Assembly: GCF_000520995.1 (NCBI RefSeq)
Contig: NZ_JACA01000007.1
Coordinates: forward strand, 107,063 to 171,062
Length of the DNA stretch: 64,000 nucleotides
From: Aquimarina macrocephali JAMB N27
Lineage (GTDB): Bacteria; Bacteroidota; Bacteroidia; Flavobacteriales; Flavobacteriaceae
Direction of reading: 5' to 3'
Positions 7,141-47,353 of this stretch are shown here, in pieces. The notes under the pieces were generated by a model. The model made no database searches, was not told the origin of the DNA, and was given only the letters and a program-made list of their open reading frames with translations. A program made the translations under genes and the position numbers. Position 1 is the first letter of the stretch. Every line of letters starts with the position of its first letter.

Positions 7141-7169
7141 TAGTGTGTTATAACTTTTGTTAGCTGTAG
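7141..7169 (-). repeat. terminal half attC-like site (distal array end)
   Basis: Only the right arm is present: GTTAGCTGTAG at 7159. The left arm is replaced by the YdeI relic. The GTTAGC box is complementary to the GCTAAC box at 8699 on the far side of the next two genes. Confidence 0.6.
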
Positions 7170-8101
7170 TTTTTATTTCTTTGATAATATTTCAAAACCC
7201 GCATAGCTCTCAATGTATTCCACCTACTGGGTTTACCAGCTTTTTCCATTACAAAGTGTAACTGGCCAGGATGAGCCGCTTGCATATTCCAAGTGCCATA
7301 TTTATTTCGTTTTTTTTGAATTACTGTAATAGCTTCATCTATTCTTTCATCCCACTTTCTTTCAGCTTTTTGGAAATAATCCAATGCTCTAAGAATATCA
7401 TACTTCCATCTGCTCGGATACGATAATTTCAAAAAGTCCTTGTGAATAATTTTACCTGTTCGGTCAGAAAGGAATAATCTATGAATCAGTATGAATTCTT
7501 CTGCACTTTTGATTGCGCTTGAAATGTCATCTTTTCTGTAAGTGAAACCTGCTTTTTGAAACTCAAGCAGTCCTTCAAGAACTGAGATTGTTGAATGTAA
7601 AGAACTATGACTTGCCCCGCTTCTTGTCGTCCTACAATTGAATCCGCCATCATGCATTATTTCATTGAGAAGACTATCTACAATAGATTCAAGTTCCTTT
7701 TCTGGAACATTGAAATAAGATGCATAATTTAAAAACATACCATTTACACAAACATCACTATGTTGAGAGGTGGATGAACCAAGTTGAATTCCTCCATCTT
7801 TGGCTTTTGATGTGTTTAGAACCTCTTGGATCGGTTCTTTTACTGGTTTGTGATTAGGGCTCAAATTCAAATTTCGAAGGTCGAGAAGAGTATAATGAGT
7901 CGAAATCCATTTAGGTTGATAAAACCCATCTCCCCAATTGCCATTTTGCTTTCGTTTTACTAAGAATTGTTTCCCCCACCCTTCATTTGCAATTCTCTCT
8001 TGTAAATCTTTTTTGTCAGAACCTAACAAATCACGGTGAACCTGATACTGTATTGAAACATCACCATTAAGCAACCATTATATAATTTGTTCTTCGTCCA
8101 T
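7160..8101 (-). pseudogene. prenyltransferase/squalene-cyclase-like repeat protein with an early stop
   Basis: The 304-codon open frame is rich in alpha/alpha-barrel repeat features (GNWGDGFYQPKW, GGFNCR, KYGTWNMQAAHPGQ) typical of the prenyltransferase/squalene-oxidase repeat fold. An ATG at 8101 reads MDEEQII, then TAA at 8080-8078, then WLLNGDVSIQYQ, so the natural start is cut off by one nonsense codon. Translation might restart at TTG 8074. The stop codon lies inside the R box of the array's last site. Substrate and role are unknown. Confidence 0.6.
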
Positions 8102-8155
8102 TTTTAACGTTCCTTAAGGGACATTATTTACACAAGTTAAAGATTAGGGTTTATT

Positions 8156-8659
8156 TTATTCAAATTGATACGGCTCTTCATTGTTCACCATATTTCTAAT
8201 ATTATCCATAACTCTTTTCATATAGATTCTCCAAAACGTTTTTGCAAATATCCAATTGAAGGGATAAAATACAGGATTCTTAGAGTGTAAAAAATAGGTG
8301 TATTCTACTAAAATTTTCCTTTCTTCTAACTTTGTCACTTTCCATTTTCCAACAAATTTGTAAAACCCAAGCATCCAAGATTGAAATTCATCTATTTGTA
8401 TTTTCCAATATTCATTTTCAACTCGTTCAAGTATACTATCTACAGAAGCAAAACCTCCTTTTTGCGTCATTGATTTAGCTACATATATTTTTTTGCTCGC
8501 CCCTACTTTTCCCCAATTTTCATCATTTTTTGTATGGATCACCTTAGGCATAACTCCATATCCAGTATGAACTTTTGTTACATCACATAATATTGGTGTT
8601 TTAAATGCTCTTTCCAAAGTACATTCAAAAATTGAGGATTTCTTTGCTTTAAATTTCAT
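8156..8659 (-). CDS. SRPBCC (START/Bet v1-like) family protein
   Basis: 167 aa without signal peptide. The opening (ECTLERAFKTPI), the WGKVG...KKIYV strand pair, and the long C-terminal helix ending in an Arg-rich MKRVMDNIRNMV segment resemble polyketide-cyclase/SRPBCC proteins that bind small hydrophobic ligands. It shares a cassette with the squalene-cyclase-like gene: the R boxes at 7159 and 8699 pair over GTTAGC. Function unknown. Confidence 0.5.
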   Translation of the reverse strand: MKFKAKKSSIFECTLERAFKTPILCDVTKVHTGYGVMPKVIHTKNDENWGKVGASKKIYVAKSMTQKGGFASVDSILERVENEYWKIQIDEFQSWMLGFYKFVGKWKVTKLEERKILVEYTYFLHSKNPVFYPFNWIFAKTFWRIYMKRVMDNIRNMVNNEEPYQFE

Positions 8660-8698
8660 TTTTTAATTCTGGTTGACTCCTTGTTTTACTTCCTGATC

Positions 8699-8750
8699 GC
8701 TAACATTGAGTATAAGCAGTTGTTTTTAATGTCGTTTATATAGTGTTAGC
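8699..8750 (-). repeat. attC-like site 2 (short form)
   Basis: Arms GCTAACATTGAGTATAA and TTTATATAGTGTTAGC. The interior (TAAGCAGTTGTTTTTAATG) is shared with the site at 12439, marking a short-loop subfamily. Confidence 0.8.
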
Positions 8751-8758
8751 AACAGTTT

Positions 8759-9102
8759 TTATTTCTTTTCTTCTCGCAAGATTTTCTCCATTTTACGACC
8801 CTTTGCTAATTCATCTACCAACTTGTCGAGATATCTTCTTTTTCTGATTAATGGATCATCAATTTCCTCAATTCGATACCTGCAGATCATCCCATTTATC
8901 AGATGGGCATTTGGATTTAACTTTGCCTCCTGAAAGAATATTCTAAATGTTGCCTTGTTGTCAATAATCTCTTGTAATTTATCTGCATCAAAACCGGTTA
9001 GCCATTCTATCACTTGGTGTAGTTCTTCTATTTTTCTCCAATCTATTCAAGTAAAGAGGGTAAATTGAACTAAAAGTCATTTTTGCTATTCGCTCAGCTG
9101 TT
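8759..9102 (-). pseudogene. DUF2200 protein, frameshifted and N-truncated
   Basis: The open part (84 codons from GTG 9013) carries the DUF2200 core: WLTGFD, NPNAHLINGMICRYRIEEI and RRYLDKLVDELAKGRKMEKIL. Upstream, another frame supplies the missing family N-terminus (ERIAKMTFSSIYPLYLNRLE) and then switches to EELHQVIEW. One frameshift near 9030 therefore breaks the gene, and the first few codons are also lost. Confidence 0.7.
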
Positions 9103-9105
9103 ATT

Positions 9106-9552: not shown

Positions 9553-9573
9553 AATATTAGTGTTTTATATTTG

Positions 9574-10884: not shown

Positions 10885-10893
10885 GTTTACATA

Positions 10894-12438: not shown

Positions 12439-12494
12439 GTTACAACGATTTGAATAAGCACCTGTTTTAATGTCGTTTATTTTTTTGTTATAAG
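12439..12494 (-). repeat. attC-like site 3 (short form)
   Basis: Arms GTTACAACG and GTTATAAG at 12487. It shares the TAAGCA...GTTTTAATGTCGTTTAT interior with the site at 8699. The stop of the GNAT gene lies inside it. Confidence 0.75.
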
Positions 12495-13004
12495 TTTTTT
12501 GTCACACCAATACCAAGCAACATCTTCACTTCCAGGTTCATAAGGTGCAAATTTATCAAATTCCATCCCAACTTTTTCCATTACTCTTATAGATGCTTTA
12601 TTTTCTTTCATAGCAATTGCTATTATCCGTCCTAATTCGAGTTTATCAAATCCGTATGTCAAAATTGCGTGAGATGCTTCTGTTGCAAAACCCATCCCCC
12701 AATATTTAGATGAGAATCTATAACCAAGATCAATTTCATCAAATTCAGGCAGGTATGCTAAACCAGCCCAGCCAACAAACTGCATTCCATTTTTTAGAAA
12801 GGTAGCCCATCTTCCATATCCATACTTTTTATAGTCGTAAATTCTTGTCTGTATTGCCTGTTCCATTTCTTCTATAGATTCAACCAGAGGTTCTCCCGTA
12901 TACTTTTGTACGTCAGAATTAGAATGCAACTGAAACATTTCCTCTTTATCATCCAAAGTAATTTCCTTTAACAATAATCTTTCTGTTTCTATTAAGGTTT
13001 TCAT
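12477..13004 (-). CDS. GNAT N-acetyltransferase, RimJ/RimL type
   Basis: 175 aa. The opening ETERLLLKEIT, GYRFSSKYWGMGFATEA and the later ELGRIIAIAMKENKASIRVMEKVGM are hallmarks of RimJ/RimL-type GNAT enzymes that use acetyl-CoA; the target amine is unknown. It sits alone in a clean cassette: the box GTTATAAG at 12487 is fully complementary to CTTATAAC at 13012. Acetyltransferases are common integron cargo. Confidence 0.88.
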   Translation of the reverse strand: MKTLIETERLLLKEITLDDKEEMFQLHSNSDVQKYTGEPLVESIEEMEQAIQTRIYDYKKYGYGRWATFLKNGMQFVGWAGLAYLPEFDEIDLGYRFSSKYWGMGFATEASHAILTYGFDKLELGRIIAIAMKENKASIRVMEKVGMEFDKFAPYEPGSEDVAWYWCDKKLITKK

Positions 13005-13011
13005 TTTATTG

Positions 13012-13182
13012 CTTATAACGTTTCATATATGTGCCGTAACAGAGTAAGATATTACCTAGCCTTGACATTATTTATGCATTGATTGCTATGTTTTTTGTTT
13101 TGCAAGCTACGCCATCATAAATATACAAAGACCTTTCGGTTTAGCCTCAATCAGCTATGATCACATATAAGAGGTGTTACCC
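13012..13182 (-). repeat. attC-like site 4
   Basis: Arms CTTATAACGTTTCATATATG and CACATATAAGAGGTGTTACC. The interior belongs to a subfamily also seen at 30618 and 44083 (a ...TTACCT.GC... hairpin start and ...GCTATGATCACATA end). Confidence 0.85.
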
Positions 13183-15632: not shown

Positions 15633-15766
15633 ACTACCAACGTGTTTGTATATGGAAAGTTGCGTGTTTGTGTGCGAAGAATTTCCTTCGGAAATTCACA
15701 CGTAGCAAACGTACAACGACCTTTGCTTAATTCTAACTCCTGCAATTTTTTATACTGTATTGGCAA
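15633..15766 (-). repeat. attC-like site 6
   Basis: Arms ACTACCAACGTGTTTGTATA and TATACTGTATTGGCAAC, with an internal hairpin GAATTTCC-TTC-GGAAATTC. The left box pairs across the three-gene cassette with GTTCGTAGTAG at 13579 (10 of 11 including one wobble). Confidence 0.82.
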
Positions 15767-15773
15767 CTGGTTT

Positions 15774-16169
15774 TTATTTTATTTTAACTGAACCTGAACA
15801 AACATCTCCTTCCTCAACTCCAATTAACCAAACTTTTAATTTTTCAATTCGCTCTTCAGTCAGTTCTTTCAAAAAATAAGAAACGCACATTGGGTAAACA
15901 CTTCCATACTCGGTTTGTTTATTTTTAACAGGGAATTTCATTTCCAATTCAGCATCTCTGTAAGAAATCCAAATTCTTTGTGTTTTTTTAAGTCGGTCAA
16001 TAAAAATTGTGTCAGATTTATATTCTGTCAGTATATTTTGATAAACTTCATTAAGTTCTATATCCGCTTTTTGATATTCGTTATTCGCATCTTTATTCAT
16101 TTCCGATTGAGTCTGCGAAAAACAAGTCAATTTAAAAGTCAAAAATAATATTAAAAATAATCGGTTCAT
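15774..16169 (-). CDS. exported DUF1311/LprI-like protein
   Basis: 131 aa with signal peptide. The mature chain has the DUF1311 pattern: ANNEYQKADIELNEVYQ, FIDRLKKTQRIWISYRDAELEM and two cysteines (CVSYF, GDVCSG). Family members include the lysozyme-inhibitor-like LprI. It sits alone in a cassette with perfectly complementary 9-nt ends (ATTGGCAAC at 15758, GTTGCCAAT at 16196), both with A/T in place of the usual G/C at the outer position. Confidence 0.75.
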   Translation of the reverse strand: MNRLFLILFLTFKLTCFSQTQSEMNKDANNEYQKADIELNEVYQNILTEYKSDTIFIDRLKKTQRIWISYRDAELEMKFPVKNKQTEYGSVYPMCVSYFLKELTEERIEKLKVWLIGVEEGDVCSGSVKIK

Positions 16170-16195
16170 TTTTCAGTGTTTTGTTTCTTTAGCTT

Positions 16196-16392
16196 GTTGC
16201 CAATGCTTCGAGTAAGAAATGTAGGGCAATTGATAAGCGATACAATTCGGATTGGTACTAAGCCAAATATAAATATTTTGCTTTTATCTTTTTCTCATAA
16301 ACGTCAAATTTTATATTTGGCGACTTTACAAATAACATAGACCTTTGGATTAAGCACAAAAAACTTATGTTTTCTTATACATTGTTGGCAAC
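16196..16392 (-). repeat. attC-like site 7 (long)
   Basis: Arms GTTGCCAATGCTTCGAGTAA and TTATACATTGTTGGCAAC. The interior holds the hairpin CCAAATATAAA / TTTATATTTGGCG. Nearly the same interior occurs in sites 18097 and 40599 (GTAAGAAATGTAGGGCAATT core). Confidence 0.88.
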
Positions 16393-17932: not shown

Positions 17933-18096
17933 TTTTCTATTTATTAAATTAATATTGGTGCAATATCAATTTAATCTCTCCAACCAAGTAGTTGTTTTTG
18001 CTGAAGTATCGTTTGGCTTAGTTGAATTGTAAAATGTACATCTTGATTTTATTTATTACCTTCATTTTAATCTTAGTTCGGATATTTCTTTAGCTT
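17933..18096. other. gene start region, nothing recognised
   Basis: AT-rich sequence upstream of the Lnt-like gene, before the attC-like site at 18097. I see no gene or clear motif. Confidence 0.4.
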
Positions 18097-18252
18097 GCTG
18101 CTAACGTTTCGTGTAAGAAATGTAGGGCAGTTGATAAGCCATACAATTCGGGTTGGTACTAAGTCAAATATGAATATTAGGTGACTTTACAAATAACACA
18201 GACCTTTGGATTAAACACAAAAACCTATCTTTTCTTACATATTGTTATTTTC
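18097..18252 (-). repeat. attC-like site 8
   Basis: Arms GCTGCTAACGTTTCGTGTAA and TTACATATTGTTATTTTC. The interior is nearly identical to site 16196 but lacks the AT-rich hairpin insert. This is the last complete site before the non-cassette block. Confidence 0.85.
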
Positions 18253-18475
18253 TGTAGCAACACGTAAAGAGTAAGCAATTAATTTTTTGAGTCTGTCTTT
18301 TATCTGATTGAGTAAAGCTCACCGTAACAGTCACGTCAGAGTCAAGTGCGTCTTCGCGTACCAGCTAGAAAACCTGTTGTAATGAAAAGCTTTAGTTATT
18401 GATTAAAAAATAGTATTCTAAAGTGTCATATTTTGAAAACTATGGTAACTAAAATAGTAAAGACAAGCTTTAACA
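18253..18475. promoter_or_regulatory. upstream region of the sigma-factor operon
   Basis: 223 bp without a gene. A possible -7 element, TATTTTG at about 18431 (TCATATTTTGA), lies 40 bp upstream of the sigma factor start with a TTG about 20 bp earlier. The match to TAnnTTTG is imperfect. Confidence 0.3.
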
Positions 18476-18982
18476 ATGAGAAAAGAACGTGAAACTATAT
18501 TTCTTAATGCCTTAGAAGAAAATCAGGAGAAACTATTCAGAATTTGCTCGATTTATTCAAAAGACCATGAGGACGCTAAAGACCTTTTTCAAGAGGTTTT
18601 GGTTCATGTTTGGAGGTCGATGGCTACCTTTAAAGGTAATTCATCTCTTAGTACATGGATGTTCAGAATAGCCTTAAACGTTTGCCTTCGTTTTAAATCC
18701 AAACACACTAAAAACCAAAATAGATTTATTAGACTAGATAGTATAACTATTGAAAATTTTAGTTCGGAAGAAAGGATCGGAGGCGAGAATGAAAAATTAA
18801 TTAGTCTAAGAAAATGTGTAAAAAAATTGAGTGAAGGTGATAAGGCGATTGTTGCGCTTTACCTGGAAGGATTAGCCTATAGGGAAATTTCTAGTATTCT
18901 AGGCCTGTCCGAAAATAACATAGCCGTAAAGGTTAAGCGAATAAAATCAAAATTATTGAACTGTATAAATGAAATATTATGA
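18476..18982 (+). CDS. ECF-type RNA polymerase sigma factor
   Basis: 168 aa. Region 2 (YSKDHEDAKDLFQEVLVHVWRSM, then STWMFRIALN) and region 4 (GDKAIVALYLEGLAYREIS...SENNIAVKVKRIK) are complete. It is on the plus strand, unlike the cassette genes, and its TGA overlaps the ATG of the next gene (ATGA), so the two are coupled. The partner is probably a membrane regulator of this sigma factor. Confidence 0.9.
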   Translation: MRKERETIFLNALEENQEKLFRICSIYSKDHEDAKDLFQEVLVHVWRSMATFKGNSSLSTWMFRIALNVCLRFKSKHTKNQNRFIRLDSITIENFSSEERIGGENEKLISLRKCVKKLSEGDKAIVALYLEGLAYREISSILGLSENNIAVKVKRIKSKLLNCINEIL

Positions 18983-19569
18983 TAGAAGATGAATTAATTA
19001 GTATCTGGCAATCGTCTAGCAATCAGGAACGTTTAAAATTTGAAAAATCTAAATTGATGCTAGAATTACAATCAAGTTTAGGACGCTTACACCGTTGGTG
19101 GAAGTATATAGAACGGGTAAATATTATTTCTGCGTTGATAACTATTCTGGCATTTATGTTCATTGTTTATTGGGCTCCTTATATTTCTATGAAAATTGCT
19201 TCGGTACTCGTCATAGTGTGGTCAATATATGTGGGAATTCGAATGTCCGGAGTAAAAAAACTCAAGCCAAGTGATCTTGAAGAAAATTACCTGCAATACT
19301 TAGAAAAGACCAAAGTCTACCTTCTAGCCCAAAAGAAAATGCTTGAAACTTCGTTGAATTGGTCTATTTTGACTATTTACCTCATAGTTCCTTTGTTTTT
19401 TGTTGGTATTTGGGAGAAACCTTTAGCACGATATATAGGGGTCGGAGCATTTTTGGCTTTGGTCGGAGTAGGAATTTATGAATACTATTTGAGCAAAAGA
19501 AGAGTAAAAAATGAAATTATACCAAGAATTAATAGAATTGATGAATTGATTGAAAGTTTAGAAGAATAA
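18979..19569 (+). CDS. membrane protein coupled to the sigma factor
   Basis: 196 aa. A short cytoplasmic N-terminus (ELISIWQSSSNQERLKFEKSKL) is followed by two pairs of transmembrane helices and a charged tail. It lacks the usual zinc anti-sigma motif, but the overlap with an ECF sigma gene and the N-terminal position of a soluble segment before the membrane suggest an anti-sigma-like or signalling role. That is inference from context only. Confidence 0.6.
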   Translation: MIEDELISIWQSSSNQERLKFEKSKLMLELQSSLGRLHRWWKYIERVNIISALITILAFMFIVYWAPYISMKIASVLVIVWSIYVGIRMSGVKKLKPSDLEENYLQYLEKTKVYLLAQKKMLETSLNWSILTIYLIVPLFFVGIWEKPLARYIGVGAFLALVGVGIYEYYLSKRRVKNEIIPRINRIDELIESLEE

Positions 19570-19602
19570 TTCAAACATATGATTCTAGTCATTGAAACAT
19601 AA

Positions 19603-19640
19603 TATTTGAATATTAAAACTGTAATTTCAGATTACAGTTT
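19603..19640. terminator. bidirectional terminator
   Basis: AAACTGTAAT-TTC-AGATTACAGTTTTA hairpin with A and T runs on either side. It lies between the convergent membrane protein gene and the esterase gene. Confidence 0.7.
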
Positions 19641-20851
19641 TATTTAGTTAGTTTTTTGAGTTTTTCTAGAGCGTCTGTATTGCCATCTATCTCAATAGCT
19701 TTTTTGTAATACTCAACAGTGGCTTTCTTCTTTTTCTCTTTGAAGTAAAAATCTCCCATCGCCACATAGCTTCTAGATTGGTCTGGATAAAAGTGAAGAT
19801 TTACATCAAGATAAGCTTTTGCTTTTTCAGGTAGCTTATGTACATCTAAAATAAAGAATGCTACCTCATTTACAAATTCCCATTCTGGTTTCATATCACG
19901 TTTAAAATGTGTACTCAAGGTTTTAAAATGAGTATAGTAAGGTTCTGTAAGTTCTTTTGCGCTATATCCTTTAGGGGTATTGAAAAGCCATCTTGCTTTA
20001 AATTTATACCAACTAAATAAGTTTTTTATGCCAGAATACATTGAAGGAATGATCAGACTCCTGTGATCATCATCGGGATAATACTCCCAAGTAGTATCAA
20101 GGTGTTGTTTGTTTTCTACCAAGATATCGTGAAAATTAAGATTGGCTCTTAAATGTTCGGTATGTCTATCATTCATCCTTCTTACTCTTACGGTATCTAC
20201 CGAAGTGCTATTTGCGACAGCAACGTGAAGTGATTTGTTTTGATAGTTATTTTTTTGGAGTAGTTCTTCAGATGTATCTACAAATGTTTGATCATCCCAG
20301 GAAACGGCTGGATCAATAGCTAGATACTTATCAAAAACACGTGGATGAGATACATAGGTGTTTACTACAAAAAGACCCGCAAGAGAATGTCCTACGATAG
20401 TACTCATTTCATCCACAGGATATTTATTTTTAAGATATGGAGCTAGCTCACACTCCATAAAGTCTATAAAATTTTCATACCCTCCTGAATTTTCAAATGG
20501 CTCTCCGGGAGAAGCTGGGACAGCAGTAGGAGTAAAATCTCTAATTCTATCTGTATTTGGAATCCCTACAACAATGGTCTGTGGCATATCCCATTTTTCT
20601 AGATGGCTTACAATACCTGCAATTGGTGAAAATTGCTCTGGAGCGTCTAAAATATATAATACAGGGTATTTTTCACCTTCTTTACCTTCAACTGGAAGAT
20701 GCACCCATATCTCTCGATGTTCTTTAAGGGTTTCTGAGTAAATAGAATCTACCGTGGCGATGATAATTTCTTTCTTTCCGTTTTTAGAAAATTGTGCATT
20801 GATCTGAAAATGTATGCTTATAATGACAACTACTAGTAGTATGTTTTTCAT
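19640..20851 (-). CDS. exported esterase (Fes/IroE-type alpha/beta hydrolase) with TPR tail
   Basis: 403 aa with a signal peptide ending INAQ. The hydrolase region contains YPVLYILDAPEQF, the nucleophile motif GHSLAGLF, an Asp region (AIDPAVSW) and a His in DDDHRS, as in the putative esterase family related to enterochelin esterases. The last ~100 residues form tetratricopeptide-like helices (YVAMGDFYFKEKKKKATVEYYKKAIEI). Exported, substrate unknown. Confidence 0.8.
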   Translation of the reverse strand: MKNILLVVVIISIHFQINAQFSKNGKKEIIIATVDSIYSETLKEHREIWVHLPVEGKEGEKYPVLYILDAPEQFSPIAGIVSHLEKWDMPQTIVVGIPNTDRIRDFTPTAVPASPGEPFENSGGYENFIDFMECELAPYLKNKYPVDEMSTIVGHSLAGLFVVNTYVSHPRVFDKYLAIDPAVSWDDQTFVDTSEELLQKNNYQNKSLHVAVANSTSVDTVRVRRMNDRHTEHLRANLNFHDILVENKQHLDTTWEYYPDDDHRSLIIPSMYSGIKNLFSWYKFKARWLFNTPKGYSAKELTEPYYTHFKTLSTHFKRDMKPEWEFVNEVAFFILDVHKLPEKAKAYLDVNLHFYPDQSRSYVAMGDFYFKEKKKKATVEYYKKAIEIDGNTDALEKLKKLTK

Positions 20852-20974
20852 TTAAAAGTGATTTTATGATGATTATTTGACAGGCTTATCACAATGTAAA
20901 AGTACATTCAAAAAACCTTCAAACCGCTAAAAAATATGGGTTTGGTACGAAAAGTTATCTATTAGGGACGAAAA

Positions 20975-21709
20975 TTATAAAGTTAAAATAACCTCTTTAT
21001 AATTTTTAGAAACAACTACTTCCATTTGGGTAACATAAATCGTATTTTGATTTTTCCAAGATTTAAAATGAGAAGGATTTATAAAGTGAGAACGATGCAC
21101 TTGTATTAAAGAAGGAACAGTTTGATGAATTTTTTTTAGAGAAGATCGTATAAGTTTTGAACTCAAAGCATTATTATCTAAAAAGAAAATCTCAACATAG
21201 TTTTGCGAACTCGAGACAGATATTAAATCTGATGGATATAGTTTGAGTATGTCTAACTTATTATCACCTTTTATAGTGAGCATGGTTTCTTTAGGAGGAA
21301 TGAGTTTTACAACATATATTCTAGCGAGTATTAGGATAGGAATTAAGACAATAGAGGTCTTTGCCATTAAAAATGAGAAGTAAGAAAAGTTGTAAGCAGA
21401 GTTTACAAAATCGCTTTTAGAGTATGCATACAATACAATGGTAAAAAACAGACAGTAACATACTATGGTTATAATCTCAAAAGTTATATTCCATCTTAAA
21501 ATCTTTTGATACAACTTATTTTGTATGACAGCTACAATAGCATAACATAAGAAGCTAAACATACCAAACCCAATACTTATAGGAACCCATTCATAATCTA
21601 ATATAGCATCGTCAAAGGGTCTAATAAAAAAACCAAAACAAAAAATCCAAAAACCTATAAATAGCCCAACAAATAGGTGATGTTTTATGGATGGATTAAG
21701 TTTATTCAT
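20975..21709 (-). CDS. LytTR-family membrane regulator
   Basis: 244 aa. Four transmembrane helices, then a LytTR DNA-binding domain (KLYPSDLISVSSSQNYVEIFF, SLIQVHRSHFINPSHF). Same architecture as the regulator at 14796 but a different protein. It lies upstream of the esterase gene with a 123-bp gap and is the last gene of the non-cassette block. Confidence 0.85.
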   Translation of the reverse strand: MNKLNPSIKHHLFVGLFIGFWIFCFGFFIRPFDDAILDYEWVPISIGFGMFSFLCYAIVAVIQNKLYQKILRWNITFEIITIVCYCLFFTIVLYAYSKSDFVNSAYNFSYFSFLMAKTSIVLIPILILARIYVVKLIPPKETMLTIKGDNKLDILKLYPSDLISVSSSQNYVEIFFLDNNALSSKLIRSSLKKIHQTVPSLIQVHRSHFINPSHFKSWKNQNTIYVTQMEVVVSKNYKEVILTL

Positions 21710-21756
21710 TTATTAATAGTATTTGGTTTTTCAAATTAAATTTTGTTTTAACTCTC

Positions 21757-21792
21757 TGTCACAATAAATTATAGCCATTGTTGTGTTTAGTG
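21757..21792 (-). repeat. half attC-like site where the array resumes
   Basis: Only a right arm: CACAATAAATTATAGCCATT then GTTGTGTTTAGTG. It is similar to the right arm at 39560-39590. The box pairs with TTAAGCACAAC at 22306 across the next gene. No left arm before the LytTR gene. Confidence 0.7.
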
Positions 21793-21797
21793 TTTTT

Positions 21798-22289
21798 TTA
21801 TTGAGAATTTTTAAAAGTGTCCTCAAAATATTTTGTCCATTTTCCGTCAACTAATTGTTCTCCATATTCTCGAAAACCGCCGTCTAATGTTCTATTGAAA
21901 ATAAATCGATTTTTTTCATTACTCCACACTATTAATTGTCCATTTTTATACTCTGCAGGATATCTAGAAACCCCTCTTTTAGAAAAAGCATAATAGTAGT
22001 ATTTATTGTCTTTTTCATCATAATAAATTATTGTGTGCAACTGCAATAATTCGGTGTTCAACTCAATAACCAAAATGCTCTTGTCTATGTCATAGGTGAT
22101 TTTTTGGTATGCCGAACCTTGTTTGGAAACCATACCTTTTTCATAAACTTTCGACGTTCCAATCCATTCACCAACCATAAAGTTTAATAATTCCATTTTC
22201 TCTTGTTTTTCATTTTGGCTAAAAACAGAATTAGTTAGTAAAAGAAAGGCAATGAGATAATAGTATTTAGTAATTATTCTATAGTTCAT
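21798..22289 (-). CDS. exported beta-barrel-like protein of unknown function
   Basis: 163 aa with signal peptide from ATG 22289 (MNYRIITKYYYL...NSVFSQ). A longer in-frame start at 22352 would run through the attC-like site and is rejected. The mature part (FMVGEWIGTSKVYEKG, ILVIELNTEL, KYYYYAFSKRG) resembles lipocalin/DUF1579-like ligand-binding barrels. It is a cassette with ends pairing 9 of 10. Confidence 0.65.
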   Translation of the reverse strand: MNYRIITKYYYLIAFLLLTNSVFSQNEKQEKMELLNFMVGEWIGTSKVYEKGMVSKQGSAYQKITYDIDKSILVIELNTELLQLHTIIYYDEKDNKYYYYAFSKRGVSRYPAEYKNGQLIVWSNEKNRFIFNRTLDGGFREYGEQLVDGKWTKYFEDTFKNSQ

Positions 22290-22305
22290 ATTTGTTAGTT
22301 TAATA

Positions 22306-22444
22306 TTAAGCACAACTGTATTGTATATGAAATGGCGATTCTTTAAAAACACAAATCTTTCATCTGTGATTGCTTTTTTATAGTATGGAAGAACTCAAAG
22401 ATAGCCAAATATTGAGCATTTTTTATATATTCTGTTGTGCTTAG
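22306..22444 (-). repeat. attC-like site 10
   Basis: Arms TTAAGCACAACTGTATTGTA and TATATATTCTGTTGTGCTTA. Here the two boxes also match each other almost perfectly. Confidence 0.85.
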
Positions 22445-22500
22445 TTTTTCAATTTAATACTGTGTCTATATAAACATGTTGGAATAAGAGTAGAAGCTAA

Positions 22501-23307
22501 TCATTTTCTTAACACATAATGATAATAAACCATCTTACCATTACTCAATTCCTTATGGATGTTCGAACCCTTTACTCCTGCAAAATCATTCAGCGGCTTT
22601 TTTAACCAACCCTTTACCATATTTTGAAAGAATTCTAACTTGAATTCATGAAATGCATCCATTGCATTGACCACTTCCTTCGAGATCAATTCCTTTTTGA
22701 GTACTTCAAATCCTGCATCATTGAAAGTCTTATCAAGTTCTTCAATTTTTTCTGAGGGACGTAGATCTGCAAACAAAAAATACCCGCCAGGACGAAGCAC
22801 TCTGTTTACTTGCTCCACAAACTTTTTCATGGACCCATAGCAATGTGACGATTCGACATTCACAATCACATCTACACTTTCATTCCCCAACGATAAGTTT
22901 TCTGCATCACCATGAATAAAGGTTAATCCTTCCACCGAATGATGTTTGTTACAGAATTTGATTGCGTTTTTAGAGTAATCAATTCCAATCATCGTCTTTG
23001 GTTTAAGATATCGTTTGATGTACGACGAACCTCCCCCACGTCCACTACCAACTTCTAATACGTCTTTATCAACAAGGTCTATAGCTGTTGCCACATGGTG
23101 GTATAGCTGAATCATATACCGGTCACGTTCTTCTTCCTCTTTCAGTGAGATTCCAATAGGTTCATTGCAAGATTCGTATCCGTAGTTCATATAAGTCCAC
23201 TCCTCTGTTGGATACTTCTTTGACAGATACTCATATAGTTTTTTCCAGACCGTTCGCTTCAGTTGTGGAGAAATTTTAAGAAAGAAAGCAAAAATATTGG
23301 TTAGCAT
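22501..23307 (-). CDS. class I SAM-dependent methyltransferase
   Basis: 268 aa. The SAM-binding motif I is VLEVGSGRGGGSSYIKRYL, the acidic end of strand 2 is IGIDYS, followed by IHGDAENLSLGNESVDVIVNVESS and FADLRP. This arrangement resembles the small-molecule methyltransferases related to phthiotriol/sterol methyltransferases. Substrate unknown. Single-gene cassette: GTTGTGCTTAG at 22434 pairs with TTAAGTACAAC at 23397, with two T-G wobbles on the plus strand. Confidence 0.85.
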   Translation of the reverse strand: MLTNIFAFFLKISPQLKRTVWKKLYEYLSKKYPTEEWTYMNYGYESCNEPIGISLKEEEERDRYMIQLYHHVATAIDLVDKDVLEVGSGRGGGSSYIKRYLKPKTMIGIDYSKNAIKFCNKHHSVEGLTFIHGDAENLSLGNESVDVIVNVESSHCYGSMKKFVEQVNRVLRPGGYFLFADLRPSEKIEELDKTFNDAGFEVLKKELISKEVVNAMDAFHEFKLEFFQNMVKGWLKKPLNDFAGVKGSNIHKELSNGKMVYYHYVLRK

Positions 23308-23396
23308 AGGTTAGCAATATATTGAAAATGGAACGTACTAAGTTAGAAATATTTTATATCAAAGTAGCTACAAAAAAGGTTATTCATCATGTTAGA

Positions 23397-23423
23397 TTAA
23401 GTACAACGTTTTGTTACTAATCC
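23397..23423 (-). repeat. collapsed attC-like site
   Basis: TTAAGTACAAC-GTTTT-GTTACTAATCC: both R boxes are present, but the body between them is reduced to about 5 nt. It is either a deletion product or a minimal junction. Confidence 0.55.
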
Positions 23424-23785: not shown

Positions 23786-23827
23786 ATTTTCTGTCTTTTT
23801 ATAGATTAATAGTTTGTGTTGAATTAC

Positions 23828-24020
23828 TGCCAACGTTAAATATATGGCAAGTTGGGCAGAAAATAAGCGATTACTTTCAGTTTAACCACAAGCCAAAACT
23901 TTTTATCTTGTTTTATTTTTTCATTTTTAAAACCAAATCAAAAGATTTGGTTTTAAAAATAGACAACAACCTTTCGATTAAGCGCTAATTGCTCTATTTA
24001 CTATATATAGTTTTGTCTAC
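23828..24020 (-). repeat. attC-like site 12 (long)
   Basis: Arms TGCCAACGTTAAATATATGG and TATATATAGTTTTGTCTAC. The interior hairpin AACCAAATC-AAAA-GATTTGGTT. The region GAAAATAAGCGATTACTTTC is shared with the site at 42083. Confidence 0.82.
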
Positions 24021-24024
24021 TTTT

Positions 24025-25723: not shown

Positions 25724-25727
25724 AATG

Positions 25728-25860
25728 TGCTACAACGTGTTCGTGTATGGTCAGTTGCGTAAAAGTACACGCTTTATTTTCCGCAGTAATATAATAAAAA
25801 GTACGCAAAGATCGTCGTCCTAGCCAGCTATAGCAATTAGTTATACACGTTGTTGTGTGC
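25728..25860 (-). repeat. attC-like site 15
   Basis: Arms GTGCTACAACGTGTTCGTGT and TTATACACGTTGTTGTGTGC. The boxes differ from each other but pair perfectly with the neighbours across the flanking genes (25123 and 26888). Confidence 0.92.
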
Positions 25861-25868
25861 TGTTTGGT

Positions 25869-27898: not shown

Positions 27899-28035
27899 AT
27901 TACTGGTAACGTTTCGTCTGTGAGTAGTAATGGATTTCTGCTCACTAACTTTTCAGTTTTGCACTGACCTTTGTTATATGTTTATATTTTGTGTTATCAC
28001 TTAAATCACTATTACTTATGCACATTGTTAGCTGC
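27899..28035 (-). repeat. attC-like site 17
   Basis: Arms ATTACTGGTAACGTTTCGTC and ACTTATGCACATTGTTAGC, inner stem AGTAGTAATGG / CACTATTACTT. Confidence 0.82.
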
Positions 28036-28070
28036 TAGCATTTTTAATATCTGATTAGGATAATCTATAG

Positions 28071-28973
28071 TTACTCATCTATGAAATAATCCCAAGCTGC
28101 TTTAGAAATATCAGATATTATTTTCTCGTTAGTTTCAAAATCTTCTACTGATTCAGTGACAAAAACGCTTATAGTAAAGTATTCTCCATTAGGTAGAAAA
28201 ACAATTCCGATATTATTTACTGCGGCAGTTATACCTGTTTCTTTATGTTTTCCCGACCAGCCAGTTTTATGCGCAACTATAGTCTCTTTAGGCAATTGTC
28301 CCCTTAGTCTGTTTTTCCCTGTTTTGGTTCCTTTCATTATATTCCATATGAAATCATAGCTTTTTTTGGAAAGTAAACCATTTTTGTTTTCATAAAATGT
28401 TGCCAGTATCTTGTTAGCTTCTTTTGGTATTGTCCAATTTAGAAATTGTGAATCCCAATTATTTTGCATGGTTTCTTCATTTATCTTAACAGCAAAATCC
28501 TTAAAACCGAGACTCGAAAAATGATTTTCAACAACCTGTGGCTCTCCAAGAAGTTTTAACAAAACATCACAACCAACATTATCACTTAAAGCAACAGTAT
28601 ACTTTATGATTTCCGCTATAGTAAGTTTGCCACCTTCTGGATACTTTCTTCGAATTGGACTCCATAGTCCTGGTAACAACTCACTTTTCTTAATGTCTAT
28701 TTTTTGGTTTAGAGAAAGGTTGCCTTTATCTATTTCAGATAAAATTGTCAATGCAATTGGAAATTTGAATACGCTTTGCATTGGAAAGTGTCTTTGACCA
28801 TTGATACTTAGAGTATCTTTAACCTTAATACCATTAATTGCGACTCCAACAATTGCTTTTTTAGTATTTATAATACTGTCAATTTTCTGTCTTAATGTTT
28901 CAATTTCTTGAGAATATCCTTTTGAGAAAGTTATTAAAAAGATTAAGAATATAATGGGCGTTTTTTTAAACAT
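28071..28973 (-). CDS. class A beta-lactamase (A2-like subgroup)
   Basis: 300 aa with signal peptide ending KGYSQ. Active-site motifs: SVFK (Ser67, Lys70), SDN (130-132), the omega loop with NEETMQNN (Glu166/167, Asn171/172) and KTG (236-238). The longer loops and overall pattern fit the CfxA/PER/VEB-type A2 branch common in Bacteroidota. Periplasmic beta-lactam hydrolysis is inferred; spectrum cannot be read. It is cassette cargo, ends partly paired (9 of 13). Confidence 0.9.
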   Translation of the reverse strand: MFKKTPIIFLIFLITFSKGYSQEIETLRQKIDSIINTKKAIVGVAINGIKVKDTLSINGQRHFPMQSVFKFPIALTILSEIDKGNLSLNQKIDIKKSELLPGLWSPIRRKYPEGGKLTIAEIIKYTVALSDNVGCDVLLKLLGEPQVVENHFSSLGFKDFAVKINEETMQNNWDSQFLNWTIPKEANKILATFYENKNGLLSKKSYDFIWNIMKGTKTGKNRLRGQLPKETIVAHKTGWSGKHKETGITAAVNNIGIVFLPNGEYFTISVFVTESVEDFETNEKIISDISKAAWDYFIDE

Positions 28974-28985
28974 AATTTTTATTTT

Positions 28986-29148
28986 GCCTGCTGGTAACGT
29001 GTTCGTATATAGAAATTTGCGTGTTTGTGTATGAGTAGTATCGAATTTTTTGCCACTACTTTTCGTAGAGTAATTTACAAAATAAAAAAGAATAGCGATT
29101 TGAATTAAAGCTCAAGTCGCTATTGCTTATACACGTTGTTGCGAGTAG
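28986..29148 (-). repeat. attC-like site 18
   Basis: Arms CTGGTAACGTGTTCGTATAT and CTTATACACGTTGTTGCGAG, inner stem GAAATTTGCG / CGCTATTGC. The right box GTTGCGAGTA pairs with TACTCACAAC at 30619. Confidence 0.85.
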
Positions 29149-29151
29149 TTT

Positions 29152-33182: not shown

Positions 33183-33208
33183 AATTTTCAGTTTGTTGAT
33201 TTTTAATT

Positions 33209-33308
33209 GGTGCTAATGTTTATGTATATGGATCGTATCGTAAAAATATACCTTAATATCTATTAGTCACTTACCTAGTTGTGAGGTGAATAAATTTTGT
33301 CACACGTT
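33209..33308 (-). repeat. attC-like site 23
   Basis: Left GGTGCTAATGTTTATGTATA, right AAATTTTGTCACACGTT. The right box pairs with GTGTGGCAA at 33826 across the flavodoxin-like gene. Confidence 0.65.
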
Positions 33309-33823: not shown

Positions 33824-33965
33824 ATGTGTGGCAACGGTCTAGTATAATAATAGTTGCCGATTTTTATGCACTAACTTTTCGGTTTAATACAGACCTTTTT
33901 TATATTTACTTACTTTCGTTTTAGCGATTAAACCGCTATTATTTTTATACATCTTCCTTCACGCC
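33824..33965 (-). repeat. attC-like site 24
   Basis: Left ATGTGTGGCAACGGTCTAGT, right TTATTTTTATACATCTTCC. The stop codon of the glycosyltransferase lies inside its right end. Confidence 0.8.
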
Positions 33966-35231: not shown

Positions 35232-35373
35232 GCATGAGTTACAGCGTATTTGTATATTGTTTGTTGCGTAGTTAAGTAAGGAATTTAGCAAATAAAAACC
35301 GAATAGAAAATCCACAAGGATTTTCATAACTAGGCTAGCACTAGCAATAAATTATATACGGTGTTACTACACG
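35232..35373 (-). repeat. attC-like site 25
   Basis: Left GCATGAGTTACAGCGTATTT, right ATTATATACGGTGTTACTAC. The interior is almost the same as the site at 24527 (ACCGAATAGAAAATCCAC, TAGGCTAGCACTAGCAAT). Confidence 0.85.
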
Positions 35374-35381
35374 TTTTTTTT

Positions 35382-39433: not shown

Positions 39434-39451
39434 TTTGAGTGATTTCCTATA

Positions 39452-39590
39452 TTGTTGCCAACGGTCTCGGCTATGATTTCGTTGTGGAATCATCCGCAGG
39501 ATTATTCCACCGAAATCCAGCCATTTGATTTATACTTTTACTTTGGTGTAGCACAAAACCACAATGAATTATAGCCATTGTTGTAGTGCG
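39452..39590 (-). repeat. attC-like site 27
   Basis: Left TTGTTGCCAACGGTCTCGGC, right AATTATAGCCATTGTTGTAG, with an inner hairpin GGAATCATCCGCAGGATTATTCC. The left box pairs with GTTGGTAGTAA at 36476 only if G-T wobbles are allowed. Confidence 0.85.
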
Positions 39591-39596
39591 TTTTTT

Positions 39597-40580: not shown

Positions 40581-40598
40581 TGAGTGTTTTTTTTAATG

Positions 40599-40798
40599 TT
40601 TGCCAACGTCTCGTATAAGAAACGTAGGGTAATTAATAAGCACTTTCGTTTCGGTTTATTACTTAGCTAAATATAAATATTTTGTTTTTATCTTTTTCTT
40701 CTATAAACGCCAAATTTATATTTGGTGACCTCGTAAAAACACACAAACCTTTAAGAAAACCCATATTAGCTATGTTTTATATACGGTATTACAGCCAG
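40599..40798 (-). repeat. attC-like site 28 (long)
   Basis: Left TTTGCCAACGTCTCGTATAA, right TTATATACGGTATTACAGCC. Interior of the GTAAGAAATGTAGGG / CCAAATTTATATTTGG subfamily (with 16196 and 18097). Confidence 0.88.
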
Positions 40799-40830
40799 TT
40801 TTTATTTTGAATCTTAGCTGTTACTTAATT

Positions 40831-42290: not shown

Positions 42291-43088
42291 TTATTTTACC
42301 ACGAACTCTTTATTTATCGACTTTTCAAATAACTGTTCTATTTCTCTTTTAGTCAGCTTTTTCATAAATTCAACATCATCTTCGTCAATTCCGCTGTAAA
42401 ACATAACTCCAGTTCCTTGTACTTTAAAATCAAGAATACTATCAAGAGAAACTTTAGTTTTAGTACTGTCAATTTTTCTCAAAGATATTTTTGTCCATAT
42501 CTCAGCTTTTTTATTCTCCAAATTAATCATAAATGACCCAATTGGAACAATACTATCGTGATAAATCCTTAATTCCTTTTTTACAGTTTCTAAATCGTAA
42601 TTCAAGATTGTTTCAAAATCGGATTTTAAGTTCAGTTCTTCGATGTGAGAAGCTAAGGTTGTTGCGATAAAACTGAAACTACAAATAGTTATAATTATTG
42701 GCTTAAATATTCTCTTAGGTTCTTTTACACTTATCAAACTCGAATTCCAATAACGAAATGAAGCTAGCAAAATTGGCAAAGCAATTAAATCCCAATAATC
42801 TACCGTTCGGTCAATTCCGATTCCGTACGAGTGAGCAAAGTCAAACATTGGTTGCGAAAATTCAGATTTCCAAAACACAAATAAAATTCCACTTAATATA
42901 TAAATAGGCTTTATTTTTTTTGGAAAGAAACAACTAAAGAAATAAGGAAAAGCAAATAATCCAGCAAAGTCTGACAGTTTTCCAGTCAGATAATTATGGT
43001 ATTCAAATTTCAGATACAAATCATTAATCAACAATAGAAAAATTGAGACAAGAAATAAAATTCGGTAAAGGTGTTTTTCTTTAGTCAC
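42291..43088 (-). CDS. membrane protein of unknown function
   Basis: 265 aa with at least four hydrophobic segments in the first half (FLVSIFLLLINDLYLKFEY, LSDFAGLFAFPYFFSCFF, PIYILSGILFVFWK) and a soluble C-terminal half. The stop lies directly at the attC box. The segment SYGIGIDRTVDYWDLIALP is notable. No family recognised. Ends GTTACCCATAG / TTATGGGTAAC pair 10 of 11. Confidence 0.65.
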   Translation of the reverse strand: MTKEKHLYRILFLVSIFLLLINDLYLKFEYHNYLTGKLSDFAGLFAFPYFFSCFFPKKIKPIYILSGILFVFWKSEFSQPMFDFAHSYGIGIDRTVDYWDLIALPILLASFRYWNSSLISVKEPKRIFKPIIITICSFSFIATTLASHIEELNLKSDFETILNYDLETVKKELRIYHDSIVPIGSFMINLENKKAEIWTKISLRKIDSTKTKVSLDSILDFKVQGTGVMFYSGIDEDDVEFMKKLTKREIEQLFEKSINKEFVVK

Positions 43089-43103
43089 GATGCTTTTTCA
43101 TAA

Positions 43104-43245: not shown

Positions 43246-43248
43246 TTT

Positions 43249-44062: not shown

Positions 44063-44082
44063 TCGTTTGTTGGTTGGTAAAA

Positions 44083-44259: not shown

Positions 44260-44264
44260 TTCTT

Positions 44265-44798: not shown

Positions 44799-44817
44799 TT
44801 TACAATAAACTTCATAA

Positions 44818-44892
44818 TTGTACACAACGTTTTATGTATGAGGCGGAATGCCACCTTTTAGGGCATCATGATTTCATACATTGTGTTATATG
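44818..44892 (-). repeat. attC-like site 32 (75 bp, classical size)
   Basis: TTGTACACAAC-GTTTT-ATGTATGAGGCGGAATGCC ... GGGCATCATGATTTCATACAT-TGT-GTTATATG. A 5-nt spacer on one arm and 3 nt on the other. Confidence 0.92.
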
Positions 44893-46076: not shown

Positions 46077-46089
46077 AATATTTGCGATT

Positions 46090-46163
46090 ACATATAACGT
46101 CTCTTGTATGATGCGTTTGCATCCCGAAGGGTGCATATGCATTATACAAATTGTTAGCATTAG
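46090..46163 (-). repeat. attC-like site 33 (74 bp, classical size)
   Basis: ACATATAAC-GTCTC-TTGTATGATGC...GCATTATACAA-ATT-GTTAGCATTAG, with the terminal hairpin TTGCATCCCGAAGGGTGCA. One extrahelical base in the left stem. Confidence 0.94.
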
Positions 46164-46167
46164 TTTT

Positions 46168-47028
46168 TTAGCATCCCATTGGAATTTCAAACTCAATAAT
46201 TTTTTCGGTAATCTGATCGTTTTTATTAGTCAGGATAACTTTTAAAAATATTTTGCTCATTGAAACTCCACTTGGGTATTCATTTGCTGTTTTAATGTTT
46301 TTTATCAACTTAGACCATTTTTCTCCGCAAAATTCATCAACTGCACTTTTAAGTTCATTGATTTTTACAGGAATAAACTTCTCCCAATCTTTCGTTGAAT
46401 ATTTAAAGGTTTTAAATGAATTTTTGATTTTATTATATGGTAGTTTTTTCCACTCAGAGTAGAAATGTTTCCATTCCGTGAGGTCACAATGAGGACCTTC
46501 ATCCATTATCGTAATACTATTCTCATAGCGTTGAAAAACTTCTATTTTCTTATATTTTTTCTGAATGATTTTGAGGAATTTGTTTTCAGGTGTTCCAGAT
46601 AAATCTAAACTTACTTTAGCCGTATCCTTTTGAACTTTTGATAATACTGTTAAATCTCCCATTAGCCCAATATTATCTAATTCTAAGATAAAATCATTAA
46701 ACTTTATTTCTACCCGTTCTTTTAGAACCTTATCTATTAGAAAACCACTAAAGACATAGCCACTAGTAACTTTACTATTTACAATCCCTTGAACTTTTAG
46801 CCACGAACCGTTTATTTTTTCTCCATTATCAACTATGAAAAATTTAATGTTGGTTTTTTCTTGAACTTTAATTTTCTCAGCATATTTAAATTTGCCTAAT
46901 CTTTTAGATTTTTTATTAGGTTCTTCTCTAATTATTAAACCATTGTCCGCATTAACATATAATATTTCTTGTCCATAAGAAATATTATATGTTAAAATTA
47001 ATAGTATGCTTAATATTACTTTATTCAT
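46168..47028 (-). CDS. exported SH3b-domain protein
   Basis: 286 aa, signal peptide ending YNISYGQ. The region after it (ILYVNADNGLIIREEPNKKS, GKFKYAEKIKVQEK) is a bacterial SH3-type domain that usually binds cell wall or partners. The rest is unrecognised. Its ATG overlaps the stop of the upstream small lipoprotein (ATGA), so both are one two-gene cassette. Confidence 0.75.
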   Translation of the reverse strand: MNKVILSILLILTYNISYGQEILYVNADNGLIIREEPNKKSKRLGKFKYAEKIKVQEKTNIKFFIVDNGEKINGSWLKVQGIVNSKVTSGYVFSGFLIDKVLKERVEIKFNDFILELDNIGLMGDLTVLSKVQKDTAKVSLDLSGTPENKFLKIIQKKYKKIEVFQRYENSITIMDEGPHCDLTEWKHFYSEWKKLPYNKIKNSFKTFKYSTKDWEKFIPVKINELKSAVDEFCGEKWSKLIKNIKTANEYPSGVSMSKIFLKVILTNKNDQITEKIIEFEIPMGC

Positions 47029-47306
47029 TTTTGATAATAAGTACCTGTTTCGTTTGATTTTAAATCCCTAATTACGATTTTTCTACTTGTAAAGCCAAAA
47101 ACACTTTCTTCTTGACTAATTAATAATGCTTTTGGTATATCTTTTAGATATAAAGTATCATTGACCAGATTGTATCTTTCAAAACTTATTACATCTCCAA
47201 TATGATATCCGTCACCATATTTCCACCAACCTTCTTTTAGTTCTTTATTACTTAAACAAGAAGTCAGAAATATTAATGTCAATATGCAGATGAGTTTTTT
47301 TATCAA
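47025..47306 (-). CDS. small lipoprotein of unknown function
   Basis: 93 aa. Lipobox LIFLTSC. Short polar mature part (EGWWKYGDGYHIGDVISFE). It is translationally coupled to the SH3b protein. This is the first gene of the array in reading direction, just after the terminal half site. Confidence 0.65.
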   Translation of the reverse strand: MIKKLICILTLIFLTSCLSNKELKEGWWKYGDGYHIGDVISFERYNLVNDTLYLKDIPKALLISQEESVFGFTSRKIVIRDLKSNETGTYYQK

Positions 47307-47318
47307 TCTATTTATGTA

Positions 47319-47353
47319 TTAATGCTAACGTTTATATAAGAATAATATTAATT
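47319..47353 (-). repeat. terminal half site at the proximal array end (attI-like)
   Basis: TTAATGCTAACG at 47319 pairs 10 of 11 with GTTAGCATTAG at 46153. After the G the sequence runs AT-rich into the YdeI gene's stop, with no inner stem. This single-box form is what an attI or insertion point would look like. Confidence 0.55.

What the first reader, a model, noticed from the sequence alone, without database searches (positions are those of the whole stretch)
7141..47353. Large integron-like gene cassette array in a flavobacterial chromosome
Seen: about 40 kb in which nearly all genes are on the minus strand, separated by about 29 complete and several partial palindromes of 52-208 bp. All share outer boxes ending AAC and starting GTT, a spacer, and a long inner stem with a variable top. 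Known: attC sites of integrons have this R''-L''...L'-R' form and cassette genes point the same way. Inference: this is a superintegron-type array, or a cluster of attC sites without integrase, in Bacteroidota, where such arrays are not, to my knowledge, a standard feature. The boxes depart from the GTTRRRY consensus, so consensus-based searches may miss them.
Basis: partly seen in the sequence, partly recalled or inferred. Interest (0 to 1): 0.95.

Follow-up and report, generated by a model that had tools for sequence, protein, structure and literature searches.

The report
Flavobacterial integron with unusual integrase
A 40-kb stretch of a marine flavobacterium's chromosome is a row of gene cassettes whose two ends carry matching private tags and whose content differs, cassette by cassette, from a close relative; it is likely moved by an integrase that lacks the extra domain of known integron integrases, which would make it a separate branch of integrons.

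Summary
Between 7.1 and 47.3 kb, 47 of 49 genes lie on the minus strand, separated by attC-like palindromes. A covariance model trained on relatives' sites finds 26 sites here, all minus (22 at E<=0.01), against one weak hit in 219 kb of other chromosome. The variable outer boxes pair across each gene, not within each palindrome, as expected of units that circularise (0 of 20,000 permutations, here and in relatives, where 36 of 54 cassettes have perfect 6-bp tags). A strain with 95-98% identical flanks (Aquimarina sp. Aq78) has a 9-kb array, most breaks lying at site cores. In relatives, 49 of 49 sites beside a conserved 376-aa tyrosine recombinase lie downstream on its strand, after an attI-like palindrome usually ending ATTGTT. 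The window array has no integrase; this genome's copy ends contig C11. That enzyme falls outside the IntI clade, lacks about 42 residues that IntI have there, and misses the integron-integrase cut-off; no IntI over the cut-off was found in 110 genomes (own and relatives). Only 13 of 93 relatives' sites fit GTTRRRY. Activity is untested. Best filed as a new variant of the integron.

The parts
7143..47338 (-). cassette array (cluster of attC-like sites without an adjacent integrase)
   Evidence: 47 of 49 genes minus; right edge 47338, left edge near 7075-7143
8693..8756 (-). attC-like site a (short form)
   Evidence: R2 33.7 bits
12435..12498 (-). attC-like site b (short form)
   Evidence: R2 27.0 bits
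13008..13187 (-). attC-like site c
   Evidence: R2 25.7 bits
13446..13590 (-). attC-like site c2
   Evidence: R2 46.0 bits
15630..15770 (-). attC-like site d
   Evidence: R2 28.7 bits
16193..16395 (-). attC-like site e
   Evidence: R2 14.9 bits, E 0.53; located by hand
18094..18255 (-). attC-like site f
   Evidence: R2 51.1 bits
22305..22445 (-). attC-like site g
   Evidence: R2 20.3 bits, E 0.03
23823..24023 (-). attC-like site g2
   Evidence: R2 27.8 bits
24524..24664 (-). attC-like site i
   Evidence: R2 36.4 bits
25029..25134 (-). attC-like site j, degenerate
   Evidence: by hand; not found by R1 or R2
25725..25863 (-). attC-like site k
   Evidence: R2 54.4 bits
26885..27083 (-). attC-like site l
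   Evidence: R2 14.2 bits, E 0.8; by hand
27899..28038 (-). attC-like site m
   Evidence: R2 33.7 bits; junction site in Aq78
28987..29149 (-). attC-like site n
   Evidence: R2 36.4 bits
30617..30798 (-). attC-like site o
   Evidence: R2 49.3 bits
31289..31433 (-). attC-like site p (left core degenerate, ACC)
   Evidence: R2 38.0 bits
31889..32029 (-). attC-like site q, the most symmetric
   Evidence: R2 52.2 bits; fold z -4.05
33206..33266 (-). attC-like site r, weak or partial
   Evidence: R2 17.0 bits, E 0.17
33824..33965 (-). attC-like site s, right box degenerate
   Evidence: R1 E 2.8; by hand
35234..35374 (-). attC-like site t (left core degenerate, AGC)
   Evidence: R2 37.8 bits
36422..36573 (-). 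attC-like site u, doubtful right half
   Evidence: by hand; not found by R1 or R2
39451..39591 (-). attC-like site v
   Evidence: R2 54.3 bits; R1 E 4e-6 though not in its training set
40596..40799 (-). attC-like site w
   Evidence: R2 29.9 bits
42082..42291 (-). attC-like site x
   Evidence: R2 47.7 bits
43103..43246 (-). attC-like site y
   Evidence: R2 57.5 bits
44082..44260 (-). attC-like site z
   Evidence: R2 38.6 bits
44817..44896 (-). attC-like site aa (short top)
   Evidence: R2 44.3 bits
46087..46164 (-). attC-like site cc (short top)
   Evidence: R2 83.1 bits, best in window
47318..47341 (-). half site at the right array edge; its tag pairs with site cc across the genes between
   Evidence: relatives' chromosome homology begins here
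28071..28973 (-). cassette gene, class A beta-lactamase-like (PF13354)
   Evidence: cassette also found in four relatives (Aq78, G044, G002, G001), each match ending within 18 bp of the cores
42291..43088 (-). cassette gene without Pfam match; example of paired end tags
18476..19569 (+). the only plus-strand genes counted in the array (sigma-70 factor and an unknown)
47354..47944 (-). DUF1801/OmdA gene, first conserved chromosomal gene right of the array
49310..51736 (-). GH31 gene; next to integrase plus array in two relatives

Best explanation
The region is a cluster of same-strand gene cassettes separated by attC-like palindromes, and its cassettes are predicted to be cut out as circles and inserted at the core AA^C/G^TT by a tyrosine recombinase encoded elsewhere in the genome. 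Shown: most cassettes carry one private tag, as an inverted repeat at their two ends; relatives' sites keep an invariant AAC/GTT core and a covarying inner stem; two close strains differ by cassettes, with most breaks at cores; in relatives the recombinase gene lies directly upstream of the array on the same strand, with a palindrome usually ending ATTGTT between its stop codon and the first cassette. Inferred: the folded bottom strand is the substrate (two nearly fixed A.C mismatches of the top strand are G.T wobbles on the bottom strand, which folds better in 60 of 61 relatives' sites); the recombinase joins attC to attC and attC to attI. Inferred: the window locus once held the integrase, as in two relatives, and is now an integrase-less, partly decayed array that the integrase at the end of contig C11 could still serve in trans. 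The enzyme is more likely a sister of IntI than a member.
For: Model R2: 26 minus-strand sites in the window, one weak hit in 219 kb control. Covariation in 62 relatives' sites: 88.0% of cells paired, 63.4% in shuffles; score 0.527 against 0.125; core pairs invariant in 62 of 62 (the alignment was fitted to the model, but slid controls give 25-37% paired). Tags across cassettes: window 124 matches, 0 of 20,000 permutations, maximum 99 (sites placed by hand); relatives, with coordinates set by the models, 4.83 of 6 against 2.23 for all pairs and 2.27 within a site, 36 of 54 perfect, 0 of 20,000. Cassette turnover against Aq78 at the same locus; 42 of 70 ends of matching segments within 30 bp of a core, 8.4% expected, and 32 of 46 without the 12 rows that only mark the array edge. 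Integrase next to array: 49 of 49 sites downstream and on its strand, in 17 of 23 loci; 5 of the other 6 loci end within 810 bp of the gene. attI: this genome's copy and Aq78's agree (one difference) through ATTGTT and then differ, likewise two copies in one genome; 17 of 21 loci examined have ATTGTT, the other four a GTT after the palindrome. Catalytic R, K, HxxR, H, Y conserved in 45 sequences. Strand preference.
Against: No recombination has been observed, and no circle seen. Presence is not strictly coupled at the thresholds used: some genomes have sites but no integrase at 1e-30 (for example G002, G004, G037, G040, G045, G056) and some have integrase but no site under strict filters (for example G028, G051, G053). 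Locus L230, with a partial integrase, has no site in about 10 kb. In the window the bottom-strand preference is weak (16 of 24 unequal cases, sign p 0.08). Junctions J1 and J2 against Aq78 are not clean core-to-core joins but look like collapsed sites, and two other match ends in the array are far from any core. 18 of 54 neighbouring pairs in relatives lack a perfect tag, eight with 0 or 1 match of 6; four of those eight have gaps over 2 kb, where a site may have been missed, two have gaps under 850 bp. Single sites also occur away from clusters (18 of 150 listed). NCBI already names many of these enzymes 'site-specific tyrosine recombinase/integron integrase', so the enzyme family is not unseen.
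Confidence: 0.88

Rival explanations
1. An ordinary integron array made by a canonical IntI that was lost or lies in an unassembled part.
For: Canonical IntI genes occur in 105 of 395 sampled Bacteroidota genomes; sites share the AAC crossover.
Against: 0 of 110 genomes (own and relatives) have an IntI over the cut-off, none in the own genome; in relatives a different recombinase sits at the head of the arrays; boxes mostly do not fit GTTRRRY.
Confidence: 0.04
2. Palindromic terminators or REP/MITE-like repeats scattered between ordinary genes.
For: Hairpins lie between genes; MITE-like palindromes exist in bacteria (recalled).
Against: Neither predicts private tags shared by the two ends of one gene unit, strand uniformity 108 of 108, an integrase at the head, or match ends at cores.
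Confidence: 0.03
3. Each gene is a small transposable unit with its own terminal inverted repeats, moved by another enzyme, and the arrays are tandem insertions into each other.
For: Formally the tags are inverted repeats around one gene.
Against: Units sit head to tail in one orientation with a shared kind of inner palindrome, and begin at one point behind one recombinase gene. I did not search for target-site duplications.
Confidence: 0.05

Closest known systems
Sedentary chromosomal integrons and CALINs (IntI type, e.g. Vibrio superintegron; partly recalled)
   Same: One-orientation cassettes, palindromic sites with AAC/GTT core, cassette ends complementary, attI beside the integrase gene, integrase-less arrays elsewhere in the genome
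   Different: Integrase outside the IntI clade without the additional domain, with an extra N-terminal domain; integrase gene upstream and on the cassettes' strand; R boxes private to each cassette; two A.C/G.T positions and no consistent bulged base in the stem
Integron integrase IntI (TIGR02249; IntI1; IntI4, PDB 2a3v)
   Different: 31% identity to IntI1; median 64 against 106 residues between the catalytic-Lys and HxxR motifs; 181-203 bits against a cut-off of 265
XerA/XerC/XerD recombinases (NF040815)
   Same: Best curated family match, 218-230 bits around the 220 cut-off; closest solved sequences
   Different: About 90-100 extra N-terminal residues; gene heads a cassette array and is followed by an attI-like site
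Integron of Salinibacter ruber M1 (PMC9024848, passages seen)
   Same: Reported complete integron in Bacteroidetes
   Different: Found by IntegronFinder; not compared here

Membership tests
Integron | Array of gene cassettes in one orientation separated by recombination sites | tested here: met
   47 of 49 genes minus; 26 of 27 R2 matches minus and in the array
Integron | attC: conserved palindromic fold with AAC crossover | tested here: met
   Core invariant in 62 of 62 relatives' sites, covarying stem; definition from PMC4792948, passages
Integron | R box GTTRRRY consensus | tested here: not met
Integron | Cassette ends complementary, so that the circle rebuilds one attC | tested here: met
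Integron | attI next to the integrase gene, insertion at G^TT | tested here: met
   By comparison only:
Integron | Cassette gain and loss between strains | tested here: met
Integron | Bottom-strand extrahelical bases | tested here: inconclusive
   No bulge shared by most of 62 sites in the stem columns looked at; two A.C/G.T positions instead
Integron | Integrase-catalysed attC x attI recombination | not testable with these tools
   Needs experiment
IntI integrase | Additional domain (I2/IntI patch) | tested here: not met
   Absent in the five new rows shown in the alignment; median 64 against 106 residues in 39 of 41 new and 29 of 29 IntI sequences
IntI integrase | TIGR02249 score at or above 265 bits | tested here: not met
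   181-203 bits in 7 enzymes; 0 of 110 genomes over the cut-off
IntI integrase | Falls inside the IntI clade | tested here: not met
   17 new and 12 IntI rows form two separate clades, 99/99 and 100/100
XerA/NF040815 | Score at or above 220 bits | tested here: inconclusive
   217.8 to 230.5 bits in 7 enzymes
Tyrosine recombinase | R, K, HxxR, H/W, Y catalytic residues | tested here: met
   Invariant or nearly invariant columns of 45 sequences

The most novel reading that the evidence does not exclude
A second, separately evolved class of integron, at home in Flavobacteriia: a Xer-derived recombinase with a new N-terminal domain and no I2 insertion recombines single-stranded hairpins whose strand is marked by G.T wobbles instead of extrahelical bases, and builds genome-wide cassette arrays with private end tags that present integron searches overlook.
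Probability: 0.5. Interest if true: 0.92.

Novelty: new variant of a known kind. Interest (0 to 1): 0.86.

Why it matters
Integron integrases are said to need their I2 insertion to accommodate the extrahelical bases of folded attC sites (PMC4792948, passages). Arrays with nearly every other hallmark of an integron, headed by an enzyme without that insertion, would make it directly testable whether I2 is needed or only one solution. Practically, integron surveys based on IntI profiles and one attC model would probably undercount cassettes in an abundant group of marine bacteria. The tags also give a simple read-out of which DNA ends belonged to one circle.

Tried and rejected
Pure palindrome scanning did not separate real from shuffled sequence and was dropped; sequence plus structure was needed. 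Rfam has no matching family at gathering threshold. Model R1 cuts many sites short, so counts use R2; R2's 62 training sites were picked with R1. Sites u and j are kept in the parts though no model finds them; rows a, b, g2, j, s, u and the half site bb were left out of the training set A2. I had noticed the tag pairing while placing the window sites by hand, so the window test may be slightly favoured; the test in relatives uses model coordinates. For it I entered 95 of the 129 matches listed by hand; two failed the AAC/GTT check, leaving 93. Integrase sequences: 41 of 52 loci of the new family and 29 of 30 IntI loci gave a usable frame; one of 18 names intended for the tree was absent, so 17 were used. 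One search measured 39 of 41 new, 29 of 29 IntI and 5 of 9 other sequences; one new sequence gave 131, taken as a motif misread but not looked at. The N-terminal domain (about residues 1-95) was hardly tested by the fold comparison and was not predicted alone, so nothing is said about its fold. Loci L230 and L231 were not examined for attI. Paper searches that listed no report of integrons in Flavobacteriia, judged by titles and abstracts; no preprints are held, so this is weak.
Full report
What is there. The window lies in a 6.06-Mb draft genome. Between about 7.1 and 47.3 kb, 47 of the 49 genes I counted are on the minus strand. They are mostly unrelated, accessory-looking genes: GNAT, DoxX, LytTR, CN-hydrolase, papain-like peptidase, DUF4241, a class A beta-lactamase-like protein, DJ-1, cNMP-binding, FMN reductase, glycosyltransferase, ApbE. 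Of 44 proteins of the array that I scanned (5 short ones were not), 14 had no Pfam match at 1e-3.

The sites. Read in gene orientation a site is ACT-xxxxxx-AAC, a short spacer, a stem, a variable top of any length, the other stem arm, a longer spacer, GTT-yyyyyy-AAT. R2 recovers 26 sites here on one strand and one weak match in 219 kb of control stretches. In the whole genome it gives 39 matches at E<=0.05, with only 150 of 5172 candidates scored: 18 in this array, 13 on contigs C39, C40 and C84, and 8 on six-plus other contigs, some single. In the 62 training sites AAC and GTT are invariant, and 16 of 17 inner-stem pairs show changes on both sides. The 5' spacer is 3 nt in all 62, the 3' spacer 5 or 6.

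Circular units. The six bases beyond AAC/GTT vary from cassette to cassette. As a rule they do not pair within a palindrome but pair across the gene: the box that opens a cassette is the reverse complement of the box that closes it. In the window the sum of matches is 124 where 20,000 permutations reach at most 99. In 54 neighbouring pairs from relatives the mean is 4.83 of 6, against 2.23 for all pairs, 2.27 within sites and 2.20 for the opposite pairing; 36 are perfect. Of the eight pairs with 0 or 1 match, four span more than 2 kb, where a site was probably missed. This is what is expected if each unit is a circle carrying one complete site that opens at AA^C.

Turnover. Aq78 shares both flanks at 95-98% identity, but its array is about 9 kb. 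It keeps window segments 12475-13029, 15759-16386, 18163-23414 and 27908-29003 in order, lacks the rest, and has sequence between 127.3 and 125.8 kb of its contig that the window lacks. The join 23414/27908 is at an AAC core, with the tag of one cassette followed by the inner arm of site m. Joins J1 and J2 are less clean and look like collapsed sites. Against all relatives' loci held, 42 of 70 ends of matching segments of 350 bp or more fall within 30 bp of a core, where 8.4% is expected; leaving out 12 rows that only mark the right array edge, 32 of 46. Rows are not all independent, as some loci overlap.

The integrase. The window array has none beside it. Of 16 phage-integrase matches in the genome, one 376-aa enzyme lies in the last 1.2 kb of contig C11, followed by a palindrome, CATTGTT and the contig end. 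Its relatives head arrays: in 23 named loci, 49 of 49 R2 matches are downstream on its strand, in 17 loci. In five genomes of one or two contigs, 157 R2 matches were found and 150 listed; neighbours within 12 kb agree in strand in 108 of 108 pairs, 18 sites are single, and a cluster stands behind each integrase or integrase remnant in four genomes; in the fifth (G003) one single site lies about 3 kb behind a broken copy. Other clusters have no integrase, so integrase-less arrays occur in most of these genomes. A remnant of a second copy ends contig C52.

attI. After the stop codon comes a near-perfect palindrome of variable sequence, then ATTGTT in 17 of 21 loci and a GTT variant in four; in L232 the ATTGTT lies further off without a clear palindrome. 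This genome and Aq78 agree up to ATTGTT (one difference) and then carry different first cassettes; two copies in G020 do the same.

Strand. Two stem positions are A opposite C on the gene strand in 60 and 49 of 62 relatives' sites (18 and 12 of 21 here). On the other strand these are G.T wobbles. With DNA parameters the bottom strand is more stable in 60 of 61 unequal cases among relatives but only 16 of 24 in the window. I read this as strand choice for the bottom strand, as in known integrons, by a different mark, and as decay of the window's sites. This is inference.

What is known. IntegronFinder 2.0 reported only In0 in Bacteroidetes before and one complete integron in Salinibacter ruber (PMC9024848, passages). 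Two papers list Bacteroidota among integron phyla (PMC8618304, PMC9668308, passages). The taxon-specific attC models of 2021 cover 11 taxa, and the string Bacteroid does not occur in the main text (PMC8352920, passages). Smyshlyaev et al. note that the insertion is not fully conserved in their integron-like subgroup (PMC8138268, passages), so an I2-less member may have been classed there; I could not check. IntI surveys have used the additional domain as the criterion (PMC2426708, passages). NCBI names many of the listed enzymes 'site-specific tyrosine recombinase/integron integrase', most likely by an automatic rule.

Verdict. A genuine integron-type system in Aquimarina and other flavobacteria. 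The window array is an integrase-less cluster of it. What is new is the enzyme, the site family and the layout, not the principle.

Noticed in passing
48002-48186: A large unrelated palindrome (50-nt arms with an inner 24-nt hairpin) between the OmdA and MOSC genes; a different sequence stands at this place in Aq78.
   Followed up: partly
7033-7121 and 47353-47440: An 89-bp direct repeat, 84% identical, at both edges of the array; the right copy is the 3' end of the OmdA gene, so the left copy looks like a duplicated gene end.
   Followed up: partly
18476-19569: A sigma-70 type factor and a downstream gene on the plus strand inside the array; kept in Aq78 at 96% identity, so not a very recent insertion.
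   Followed up: no
L048 7291-9012: Four short ORFs in a row beginning MKxIL..TGVQKLSKxxQQ.IKG (leader-peptide-like) a short way upstream of the integrase at the end of contig C11.
   Followed up: no
21770-21800 and 39560-39590: Similar short motif ATTATAGCCATTGTTGT; the second belongs to site v, the first may be half of a lost site.
   Followed up: no
L041 4056-4094 and L071 2954-2992: Contigs C84 and C51 end in the same site sequence, so the assembly breaks at repeated sites and the arrays of this genome are probably longer than seen.
   Followed up: partly
G196 C3:1893-2405 and G416 C9:167346-167873: 374-aa integron-integrase-like enzymes (141-142 bits) in another genus of the same family; may be further members of this family.
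   Followed up: no
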